Positions 39,481 to 58,805 of a stretch of 64,000 nucleotides of DNA are shown here, one piece after another (the stretch's first letter is position 1; each line of letters begins with the position of its first letter). This DNA is from Ulva prolifera (Eukaryota; Chlorophyta; Ulvophyceae; Ulvales; Ulvaceae). The position numbers were made by a program, and so were the translations under genes. The stretch is from NCBI GenBank assembly GCA_023078555.1, contig CM041196.1, positions 11,488,985 to 11,552,984 on the forward strand, in the 5' to 3' direction. Under the pieces are notes generated by a model that made no database searches, was not told the origin of the DNA, and saw only the letters and a list, made by a program, of their open reading frames with translations.

Positions 39481-42395
39481 ATGATGCTCAGCTCGGCCAC
39501 AAGTTCACGCAGCCGCAACGGCAGTGCCTCGAGCGGAAGTCAGGGTGCCCGGTCGCGGGTCGCGCTGCGCGCGCTGCTGTGCGTGCTGGGCCTGCTCGGC
39601 ATCTCTAGCACAGCATGCCACGCCGCAGCACAGCAGCCCTCCACTGCGGGCGCCGAGGAGCTGCGGCGCGCGGATGGCGCCGCTGGCGGCAGCGTGACTG
39701 CACATATGCATGGCACTCATGCGCATGGCCCCGAGCGTCTCTGGCCTGATCGTGAAGCCGCCGCTGACGTCCGGGGTGCAGCGTCAGGGGAGGGGGAGGT
39801 CCGCTCCGAAGGGGGCGCAGGTGAGGGGGCAGGAGACGGGGAGCGCGCGTCGAGCTTGCCGACAGCTCAGGCTTCAGTGCACTGGCAGGTGAGTCTCTGC
39901 CCCCAGCTCGCCACCAAGTGCAGCTGCATGCATGGGGTGCATGCACCTGGGGCCACCGGTTGCATGCATGGGATCCTACGGACCCCGCGGTGCGCCCCCC
40001 GCCCACCGTGCACATCAGCACATCATGCTGACAGCTCTGTTCTTTGAAATGACGCAAGAGACTCGATGATGTGAACACTTTCGCATCAGCTGATTGTGAA
40101 AGCCGGCTGTGGCCACTTTGTGTGGCCACACTCAGAGACACGCCTGGCTACACACGTACATAACCAAAACACCCGAAATGCTTAATGACAATGGTCAGCA
40201 TACTTTTTACAATCACTGACCAGACAGACAGGCCGCGCGTGAGGGTGCGCCGAACTGCCATCTGTCGCACCGTGCGGCGTCGTCAGATTGCAGCCCAGTA
40301 CGACCTGTATGGATTGATTAACACTGTACAGCCCGTAGCTTCCGCTCGTTGTTATCCGAGGCCTGTGTGCTCACAGGACACATGAGCAGGTCTGCGCGCC
40401 TCCACCAATTGCCCTTCTGCCCCTATAGCTATATGCGCATATATATATATATATATATATATATATATATATATATATATATATATATATATATATATAT
40501 ATATATATATATATATATATATATATATATATATATATATATATATATATATATATATATATATATATATGGGCACCTTGATCTTGCAATCGGCACCAGC
40601 ACGCCCTGTGCTTGCAAGACGCCCTCCGTTCTGCTGACCAGTCTGTGGCTTACAGAGTGTGTGGGGTTCGCCACCATCGCATGAGTCAGCACCGCGGGCC
40701 ATGGGGGGTGGCCCTCCCGCTCTCGCAACACCGCAGCCCCCCACAGCCCCTCACCCTGACTCGCCCCCTCTCGCCACCCGCAGCACCCGCTCCGACCTCG
40801 CCCATGCAGGGAGCGGCTCGGGAGGCGTGCGCCAGATCCTCATGGCCAAGAAGGGCAAAGGAAAGATGGCGAAGAAGCTCGCTGCGCTCCCACGGTGCAA
40901 CCGCTGCTTCATCACACAATGCTTCCGAAGCAAGAAGGCAAGGCAGCGATCCCGCTGCGTCGGCAAATGCAAGAAGAAGGGCCGGATGTTCACTTGCAGC
41001 TCGACGAAAGGCGACTTCAAGACGTGCATCCGGCAGGGACAGTGCTGGGACGCGTCCTGCGACGACGACGAGTTCAACGTCCCGGTGGAGCCGCTCATCC
41101 CGCTTGCCGGAGTCGTCGTCTCCGCGCCGGTTCCGTACATCCCGTGTGTCGTGACGACCAACCACCCGACCGGCTGCCCGGCCCCCGGCGCACCGATCTT
41201 ACACGGCGGAGGCACCCTGCAGCTGGCTTCCAGCACCTGCGTCAGCCACGAACACCGCCTATCGGAATGCGAAAGCCCGTACCTTCCGTTCGGCTACTGC
41301 ATGTGTACAGTCAATTTGATAGCCCCCATGAGAGGCTTCACCAGCGTGGTGCGCACTGAGAATAGGCCGTGCCGATACGGCGAGTTTGACGCCGCGGATC
41401 TCCCATTCACGGCCCCCGGCTTTGAGCCAACTCCTGAGAGCGACAGGACTGACTACAGCCCTGACAACGTGCTCAGGATCCGCACGAGCCTGCCCGAACA
41501 GTCCGTCGAGGGTGATCGGCCGACCTATGCATACAATGCGACGCTGACGGCGGAGCAGGGCGAGGTTGAAGTCACGATCGATGTCACGCTGGCCTACTTC
41601 CGCCGCATCTCGGTGCTCGCTGACCGCTTCACGTACACCGGGGCTTACGCGGACGGCTACAGCGGGGCAGACTATGAAAAAACTCAAAGCACCACGAAGG
41701 AAGAATACATTTTTGCGTTCGCCGGCGATGGGGATTATGACCTCGGCTACCGCAGCTCGGGCCACCCGAACTTCACGCCAGATGACCGAGGCGGCCTCGA
41801 TTACATGTACGTGTATCCTGGCAACGACGCCCAAGAGGGCGTGGGGATTGCGTCTTACGTAATATACAACAGCGATGCTGATGGCGGGAGCAGTGGTGAT
41901 GGTGAATACGACGCCATCGTTGGCGTAGACGGCAGCGATGCCGATATCGAGGCCGCTGCGTACGATTACACGGTGGACGAGGAGGCGACAGAGTATTACT
42001 TCCAGTACAACAAGTACACCCTGGAGCCGGAGAGGCAAGACTGCGACCTGAAGTGCTCGTTTGAGGGTGGGGGGGTGCTGGGTAACGTGCGGGAATTATA
42101 CGGGGTGGAAGGGCCGTACAGCGTGTACTACTTGAACCCGGTGCCCGAGCCTACTGCACAGCAGCTGAGGTTCAACCCGAACGGATACAATTTCGACAGC
42201 AACTTTGCTGACGCGGTGCCGACAGAAAACTGTCCAGCATGCCCTGTAGAGTACGGCGGACCGCCGGACGGCGCCCCAATTGACATTGCCCGCGGCACGC
42301 CGCTCGAGCCCGGCCCGTTTGAGGTGTTTCTGCGTGATGTGCCAGAGGAGGAGCGATTTGATGCTGGAGAGGTGAGGGATACTCCGTATACGTAG
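39481..42395 (+). CDS. Secreted Cys/Tyr-rich protein, paralogue 1 (unknown family)
   Basis: Seen: exon 1 (39481-39888, 136 codons) and exon 2 (40656-42395) join in phase 0 with CAG-GTGAG and TTACAG sites, giving 715 aa. Exon 1 encodes a basic start and a hydrophobic signal ([19 protein letters not shown]). Exon 2 encodes a Pro-rich stretch; a basic Cys-rich head from about residue 199 ([10 protein letters not shown], then ten Cys in about 60 residues); a conserved core ([42 protein letters not shown]); an acidic Gly/Asp/Tyr-rich segment; and a conserved tail ([27 protein letters not shown]). No known domain was recognised. Paralogues are at 49531 and 56117. Inference: an extracellular structural protein whose tyrosines could be cross-linked. 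A second Met at 39484 is an equally good start. Confidence 0.85.
40439..40570. repeat. (AT)66 microsatellite in the intron of Cys/Tyr gene 1
   Basis: 132 bp of uninterrupted AT dinucleotide inside the 767-bp intron, about 85 bp before the acceptor. Such tracts can extrude cruciforms, and their length is often misassembled. Confidence 0.98.

Positions 42396-58805: not shown

What the first reader, a model, noticed from the sequence alone, without database searches (positions are those of the whole stretch)
39481..58805. Tandem family of three secreted Cys-rich and Tyr-rich proteins of unknown type
Three paralogues share a signal peptide exon, a basic ten-cysteine head, strongly conserved core blocks ([10 protein letters not shown], CESPYx[13 protein letters not shown]) and a conserved tail, with an acidic tyrosine-rich segment between. 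I recognise no named domain. A cationic Cys-rich head joined to an anionic Tyr-rich body would suit self-association or cross-linking outside the cell.
Basis: partly seen in the sequence, partly recalled or inferred. Interest (0 to 1): 0.82.

Follow-up and report, generated by a model that had tools for sequence, protein, structure and literature searches.

The report
Secreted cysteine-rich protein family of Ulva
Three neighbouring seaweed genes encode secreted, disulfide-rich proteins with acidic tyrosine-rich tails; they belong to a large gene family in this alga that matched no known family in our searches and may help build its extracellular matrix.

Summary
Three tandem paralogues (51-58% identical) share a signal-peptide exon, a basic ten-Cys head, the quoted core blocks, an acidic Tyr-rich segment and a tail, under purifying selection (dN/dS 0.36-0.48). 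But three is not the whole family: the genome, Ulva prolifera or close kin, holds 44 merged loci, fragments included. In 34 analysed: hydrophobic signal stretch (32), an R-x-[LI]-[LM] box (34), a basic Cys head, a Cys core, and an acidic tail (30). Paired Cys losses suggest a head-core disulfide. Tails are enriched for Asp-Tyr beyond local composition; Tyr-Asp and Glu-Tyr are not. The box resembles site-1-protease sites; Asp-Tyr is the plant tyrosine-sulfation motif. No convincing Pfam or PDB match; structure prediction failed (pLDDT 37 and 30). Best reading: processed matrix proteins whose head binds anionic polysaccharide and whose Tyr tails are sulfated and/or cross-linked. The anatomy is shown; the function is inferred (0.4).

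The parts
39481..39888 (+). Gene 1, exon 1: signal peptide and pro-region (ATG 39481; donor GTGAGT after 39888, phase 0, inferred)
   Evidence: signal exon repeat D15
40656..42395 (+). Gene 1, exon 2 (acceptor ttacag|AGT inferred), body to stop
40830..40847 (+). Gene 1 R-x-I-L box (RQILMA), putative site-1-protease-like processing site
   Evidence: function inferred
40896..41060 (+).
41145..41372 (+). Gene 1 core (seven Cys, includes [10 protein letters not shown] and [11 protein letters not shown])
41643..42041 (+). Gene 1 acidic Tyr-rich segment
42042..42392 (+). Gene 1 C-terminal four-Cys tail ([15 protein letters not shown])
49531..49752 (+). Gene 2, exon 1: signal peptide (donor GTGAGC, phase 0, inferred)
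50006..51649 (+). Gene 2, exon 2 (acceptor ttgcag|AGC inferred), body to stop
50174..50191 (+). Gene 2 RRILMA box
50237..50407 (+). Gene 2 basic Cys head
50486..50710 (+). Gene 2 core
50939..51358 (+). Gene 2 acidic Tyr-rich segment (25 Tyr in 140 residues)
51359..51646 (+). Gene 2 C-terminal four-Cys tail
56117..56527 (+). Gene 3, exon 1: signal peptide and pro-region (donor GTAAGC inferred)
57294..58805 (+). Gene 3 body ORF (stop to stop); true exon start inside it not resolved, homologous body from 57480
57480..57497 (+). Gene 3 RQILMA box
57555..57725 (+). Gene 3 basic Cys head
57804..58022 (+). Gene 3 core
58233..58538 (+). Gene 3 acidic Tyr-rich segment
58539..58802 (+). Gene 3 C-terminal four-Cys tail

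Best explanation
The trio are divergent members of a large multigene family of secreted, disulfide-bonded proteins of the green seaweed Ulva. SHOWN (sequence level): a signal-like hydrophobic stretch; a pro-region ending in an R-x-[LI]-[LM] box; a basic head with near-constant cysteine spacing; a core ending in C-x-C...C; and, in most members, an acidic C-terminal region, which in the trio is unusually long, Tyr-rich and closed by an extra four-Cys module. INFERRED: the precursor is cut at the box by a site-1-protease-like subtilase; head and core are linked by at least one disulfide; the basic head docks on the anionic wall polysaccharides of Ulva (ulvan, glucuronan); and the acidic tails project into the matrix, where their tyrosines are sulfated and/or oxidatively coupled by animal-type haem peroxidases. 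On this reading they are structural or organising proteins of the cell wall and matrix.
For: Hydrophobic signal stretch before the box in 32 of 34 (in L017 the start Met comes just after the top-scoring stretch, read by eye). Even Cys counts from box to end of core in 33 of 34 (16 in the trio, 14 in 26, 12 in three, 10 in one; 11 in L070). Box in 34 of 34 and in 3 of 5 dropped or broken copies looked at later. Head net positive in 34 of 34, tail net -5 or lower in 30 of 34. Tail Asp-Tyr 81 against 27 (whole-tail shuffle, maximum 43 of 1000) or 38-41 (block shuffles, maximum 60 of 500 each); Glu-Tyr 26 is at expectation; Tyr-Asp 43 is at the local expectation; rest of the same ORFs: 10 Asp-Tyr, 14 Tyr-Asp. 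[quoted passage not shown] S1P/SBT6.1 cuts at RxxL/RxLx, e.g. RRIL of RALF23 (PMC13082318, passages). Ulva wall contains ulvan and a glucuronan (PMC10762512, passages). The genome has Sulfotransfer_2 (10 matches) and An_peroxidase (55 exon matches) genes.
Against: No transcript, proteome or localisation data. No usable structural model (pLDDT 37 and 30). 11 of 34 tails have no Asp-Tyr and four are not clearly acidic (L030, L071, L072, L073). Tyr-Asp also exceeds the whole-tail shuffle (43 against 27), so part of the Asp-Tyr excess is local clustering. Tails were read in single open frames; later introns could alter them. The Sulfotransfer_2 matches could all be polysaccharide sulfotransferases, and the one compared with PDB chains had no meaningful match (best E 0.56); PMC13074997 says most chlorophyte TPST-like proteins lack canonical sulfotransferase domains (passage). 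N-glycosylation sequons are few in the trio (0-2 per module). Secretion of the peroxidases was not tested. Polysaccharide binding is inferred from charge alone.
Confidence: 0.4

Rival explanations
1. Secreted signalling proteins: prepro-ligands released at the R-x-[LI]-[LM] box and activated by tyrosine sulfation, used in cell-cell, developmental or gamete communication.
For: The two signatures, an S1P-like site and Asp-Tyr motifs, are those of land-plant peptide ligands. Tandem expansion and divergence.
Against: From the box to the end of the frame the proteins are about 150-520 residues, far larger than PSK, PSY, CIF, RGF or RALF peptides (sizes recalled); no receptor tested; no match to those Pfam families at E up to 1 in 30 members.
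Confidence: 0.2
2. Cationic defence proteins: the basic Cys-rich head is antimicrobial and the acidic tail is a neutralising pro-piece removed at the surface.
For: Head pI 8.7-11.8 in 34 of 34 with compact Cys spacing; acidic tails in 30 of 34; multigene clusters.
Against: A Cys-rich core lies between head and tail in 34 of 34, and the pair C130-C211 is absent together in 5 of 5 members that lack either as a class, so head and core look like one unit. dN/dS 0.23-0.64 in 18 pairs, two regions each: no bulk diversifying selection.
Confidence: 0.12
3. Spore or zygote adhesive: the trio are components of the secreted glue with which Ulva spores settle, cured through tyrosines.
For: Ulva spore adhesive is layered in stiffness, rising towards the inner layers (PMC11966768, passages); Tyr-rich, charge-segregated proteins suit coacervation (general knowledge); peroxidase genes abound.
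Against: Nothing links these genes to spores; the adhesive is described elsewhere as an N-linked glycoprotein (recalled), yet the trio have few sequons.
Confidence: 0.1
4. Cystine-knot growth-factor-like fold: the C-x-G-x-C of the head pairs with the C-x-C of the core.
For: C-x-G-x-C invariant in the 30 aligned members and C-x-C in 34 of 34.
Against: L071 has lost C95 and C107 together while keeping C-x-C, which suggests C107 pairs within the head; L070 lost C107 but kept C95, which fits neither cleanly. The motif resemblance is recalled.
Confidence: 0.05

Closest known systems
RALF precursors of land plants
   Same: Secreted Cys-containing precursor with a basic mature region just after an RRIL-type S1P site (PMC13082318, passages; it adds that only 11 of 35 Arabidopsis RALF genes have S1P sites); gene 2 has RRIL.
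   Different: RALFs are about 50-residue, four-Cys peptides (recalled); these have a 10-16 Cys two-module body, mostly with long acidic tails, and no RALF Pfam match in 30 members.
Tyrosine-sulfated plant peptides (PSK, PSY, CIF, RGF)
   Same: Asp-Tyr motif in acidic surroundings in secreted precursors (PMC13074997, passages).
   Different: Those are short peptides first detected in seed plants in that study; here Asp-Tyr motifs lie in long tails of Cys-rich proteins, and sulfation is not shown.
Pherophorins and other volvocine matrix proteins
   Same: Secreted green-algal matrix glycoproteins (PMC10762512, passages); a large protein family in Volvox (PMC9818292, start of abstract in the listing).
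   Different: No pherophorin match at E up to 1 in 30 members; the trio's Tyr segments hold only 1-4 Pro, unlike the Pro-rich spacers of pherophorins (recalled).
Extensins
   Same: Wall proteins in which tyrosines are coupled (recalled).
   Different: Acidic rather than basic Tyr context and few Pro in the Tyr segments; no Ser-Pro repeats seen by eye in the translations.

Membership tests
Pherophorin (Pfam) | Match to the Pfam model | tested here: not met
   30 members scanned, no pherophorin hit at E up to 1; none for L070 and L072 at E up to 0.1; L071 and L073 not scanned
RALF | RRxL / RRIL processing site upstream of the mature part | tested here: met
   R-x-[LI]-[LM] in 34 of 34; RRIL itself in gene 2; cleavage not tested
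RALF | Match to the RALF Pfam model, short four-Cys mature peptide | tested here: not met
   no hit in 30 members; 10-16 Cys and a long body
TPST-sulfated proteins | Asp-Tyr motif in a secreted precursor | tested here: met
   81 Asp-Tyr against 38-41 expected in block shuffles; present in 23 of 34 tails, absent in 11
TPST-sulfated proteins | Sulfotyrosine on the mature protein | not testable with these tools
   needs mass spectrometry
TPST-sulfated proteins | TPST enzyme in the same genome | tested here: inconclusive
   10 Sulfotransfer_2 matches; 3 of 10 read and confirmed for that domain, which does not tell TPST from polysaccharide sulfotransferases; PMC13074997 links land-plant TPST to Sulfotransfer_1 and says few chlorophyte TPST-like proteins keep Sulfotransfer_2 (passage); Sulfotransfer_1 was not searched
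Dityrosine cross-linked matrix proteins | Covalent Tyr-Tyr coupling | not testable with these tools
   only a candidate enzyme family was found
Cystine-knot cytokines | Ring formed by C-x-G-x-C and C-x-C | tested here: inconclusive
   motifs present, but the Cys losses of L071 argue against it; structure models unusable

The most novel reading that the evidence does not exclude
This family is the missing substrate set of the tyrosine-sulfation machinery of green algae: S1P-processed, Asp-Tyr-sulfated, disulfide-rich matrix proteins, in which the sulfated-ligand chemistry of land plants is already in use on large extracellular proteins of chlorophytes.
Probability: 0.17. Interest if true: 0.82.

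Novelty: new variant of a known kind. Interest (0 to 1): 0.6.

Why it matters
TPST family members are reported in 60 chlorophyte species, yet the classical sulfated peptides were first detected only in seed plants, and those authors suggest unidentified precursors or non-canonical secreted substrates (PMC13074997, abstract and passages); they also caution that most chlorophyte TPST-like proteins lack canonical sulfotransferase domains. An expanded secreted family with directional Asp-Tyr enrichment gives named candidates for that gap. The protein part of the wall of Ulva, a green-tide and fouling alga, is little described in the passages read (PMC10762512, 12 of 26 places), which name polysaccharides, AGPs, extensins, expansin and collagen- or elastin-like genes. 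With 44 merged loci this is a large secreted family without a name in the libraries searched.

Tried and rejected
Known domains: Pfam on the trio and three upstream frames (best E 0.087, an upstream frame; gene 2 E 0.17), on 30 members (five families, each in one member, best E 0.03) and on two of the four deeper members (none). PDB by sequence: gene 1 alone gave polycystin-2 chains at E 0.018, 0.046 and 0.061 over residues about 426-473, the end of the acidic Tyr segment and the first tail residues, and a ribosomal protein at 0.85; rejected as acidic composition (that these chains are an EF-hand domain is recalled, so a calcium-binding segment is not excluded). The 30-member profile gave no chain at E up to 10. 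Viral and prokaryotic relatives: none confirmed in viral contigs or genome contigs. Structure: AlphaFold2 on window sequences only gave pLDDT 37 and 30, so no fold search was made.

Second copy on C9: considered as an independent paralogue or pseudogene and rejected. The gene 2 region is 99.98-100% identical; the gene 1 region shows 2-5 mismatches and 21-35 gap openings in BLAST, depending on the stretch, and 12 mismatches and 28 gaps in one global alignment, 26 of 28 of one base and 17 of 28 in base runs of three or more. It looks like a duplicated contig end with consensus errors, so its broken gene 1 frame is not taken as evidence of a pseudogene.

Cystine knot: considered and lowered because of the Cys losses in L071. 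Diversifying selection: dN/dS below 1 in all 18 pairs compared.

Literature: searches listed no paper that I recognised as describing this family. They cover open-licence PubMed Central papers only; some were capped lists (20 of 145, 12 of 38, 15 of 34,535, 6 of 684). PMC5982446 and PMC11625862 were seen as listings only.

Full report
WHAT WAS CLAIMED AND WHAT IS THERE. The window holds three tandem genes on the + strand. P0001 is 57% and 51% identical to the other two, and the bodies of genes 2 and 3 are 58% identical. Head charge is +16 to +21, and the Tyr segment is 13.5-17.9% Tyr with net charge -24 to -31. dN/dS is 0.36-0.48 with dS 0.70-0.92: old duplicates kept as proteins. The signal exon of genes 1 and 2 is 97% identical over 68 nt, while ungapped body blocks shared by them are 78-91% identical. 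A pattern from it, with up to 2 mismatches, is found at the three genes, at the C9 copies of genes 1 and 2, and at two C2 places 159 bases apart on opposite strands.

WHOSE GENOME. The plastocyanin gene of the same assembly has a first exon whose mature part is identical to PDB 7pcy over 48 residues (one further aligned residue at the exon edge differs), while 1iuz matches less well. That 7pcy is from Enteromorpha (now Ulva) prolifera is recalled; the call shows only 'plastocyanin'. The assembly is 88.9 Mb in 44 contigs and the window is 57% GC. I take the host as Ulva prolifera or very close kin (Ulvales).

THE FAMILY IS LARGE. Searching the genome with gene 2 gave 36 matches at E up to 10; with two distant members, 48 and 47 matches at E up to 0.01. 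Merged within 1200 bases, these are 46 loci, fragments included. Two are C9 copies of genes 1 and 2 that differ almost only by gaps and count as assembly duplicates, leaving 44. Of these, 26 lie in two stretches of C4 (17 at 3.09-3.29 Mb, 9 at 4.30-4.50 Mb); others are on C1, C3, C4, C5, C6, C8 and C9. The weakest rest on one query only (for example C5:8901236, E 3.2e-4). A fourth, scrambled copy with its head on the minus strand and its tail on the plus strand lies at C1:11554238-11555127. A FastTree of 34 members (box to 90 residues past the core) puts the trio on one long branch with support 1.0.

ANATOMY. A 30-member alignment has 15 invariant columns, among them 11 cysteines and the R of the R-x-[LI]-[LM] box. 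Four deeper members (L070-L073) have the same layout. Across 34 members: hydrophobic signal stretch in 32 (weak in L018 and L020); box in 34; head spacing C-x2-C-x4-C-x4-12-C-x3-C-x8(or 13)-C in all but L070 and L071; Cys counts from box to end of core 16 (trio), 14 (26 members), 12 (three), 11 (L070) and 10 (L071). L066 and L070-L073 lack both the seventh Cys after the head (C130) and C211. The other 29 have a seventh Cys, though its position varies by up to about 10 residues, and keep C211 except L018, which has another Cys in the linker instead. This suggests a disulfide between head and core. L071 lacks C95 and C107 together, which suggests that pair; L070 lacks C107 but keeps C95. One ORF dropped by my pattern (C4:3186798) has the box but lacks C87. 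The trio add one Cys pair (GQCW..TC), the long Tyr-rich segment and a four-Cys C-terminal module, found only in this cluster and its C9 copy.

TAILS. 30 of 34 tails have net charge -5 or lower; 23 of 34 hold at least one Asp-Tyr, 21 at least two, and 11 none. Asp-Tyr occurs 81 times against 27.4 in whole-tail shuffles (1000, maximum 43) and 38-41 in shuffles within blocks of 10, 15 or 30 residues (500 each, maximum 60). Glu-Tyr (26) is at expectation in both controls. Tyr-Asp (43) exceeds the whole-tail expectation (27.4, maximum 45) but equals the local one (38-41), so part of the excess is local clustering and part is directional. Without the trio: 60 Asp-Tyr against 31 Tyr-Asp. The rest of the same ORFs: 10 against 14. 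The sequences are related, so counts are not independent. Tails were read in single open frames, so unseen introns could alter some of them.

HOW IT MAY WORK. Shown: secreted-type layout, conserved cysteines, the box, charge segregation and Asp-Tyr enrichment. Inferred: cleavage at the box by an S1P-like subtilase (RxxL/RxLx and RRIL of RALF23; PMC13082318, passages); tyrosine sulfation (Asp-Tyr; PMC13074997, passages); oxidative coupling by animal-type haem peroxidases, of which one search shows 55 exon matches (about 23 loci by my merging by eye), one at C1:11571028-11573710, about 16 kb beyond the scrambled fourth copy; and binding of the basic head to ulvan or glucuronan (wall composition: PMC10762512, passages). 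The peroxidase neighbour may be chance: one search lists no An_peroxidase match on C4, where most of the family lies. The ten Sulfotransfer_2 matches do not prove a TPST, and PMC13074997 cautions that most chlorophyte TPST-like proteins lack canonical sulfotransferase domains.

NOVELTY. No Pfam family reaches E 0.01 in 30 members, no PDB chain matches the profile at E up to 10, gene 1 alone gave only weak acidic-stretch matches, and no prokaryotic or viral relative was confirmed. Other eukaryotic genomes could not be searched, so how far the family extends beyond this genome is unknown. PMC13074997 (passages) states that TPST members are present in chlorophytes while its classical substrates were not found there; this family is a candidate set of substrates. 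I rate it a new variant of a known kind, a lineage-specific secreted Cys-rich family, because the function is inferred.

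Noticed in passing
G000 C9:about 88-102 kb (L003, L004, L006, L009): Near-identical duplicate of the gene 1 and gene 2 region near the start of another contig; gene 2 region 99.98-100%, gene 1 region differing mainly by one-base gaps. Looks like an assembly duplicate.
   Followed up: partly
window 42458-42559 and 45848-45949: Two copies (79%) of a 102-nt repeat whose ends read as near-inverted copies of each other (GTGTTGGGTC / GACCCAACAC type), like a small inverted-repeat transposon; a weaker similar stretch near 51716 follows gene 2 (seen by eye).
   Followed up: no
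window about 45054-45155: Long palindrome (arms around 45060-45100 and 45115-45155), with related copies near 45987 and 46051.
   Followed up: no
window 40439-40570 and about 48913-48948: Long TA microsatellite inside the inferred intron of gene 1 and a long poly-C run upstream of gene 2.
   Followed up: no
window 1066-5887 (minus strand): Three long overlapping frames, one with a weak DUF4218 match (E 0.0036, below the cut-off), possibly a DNA transposon.
   Followed up: no
G000 C1:11554238-11555127 (L010, L022): Fourth family copy with its head on the minus strand and tail on the plus strand, and a long poly-Asp run in the tail.
   Followed up: partly
G000 C2:0.3-1.17 Mb, C1, C3, C5, C6, C7: Expanded animal-type haem peroxidase family (55 exon matches, about 23 loci by eye), 12 of the 23 on the first 1.2 Mb of C2.
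   Followed up: no
Pro-regions of several family members, e.g. L029, L052, L016, L072: A conserved pro-region motif (V-T/R-G-x-A/V-x-x-x-x-Q-A-x-F/L, seen by eye) precedes the R-x-[LI]-[LM] box but is not evident in the window trio.
   Followed up: no
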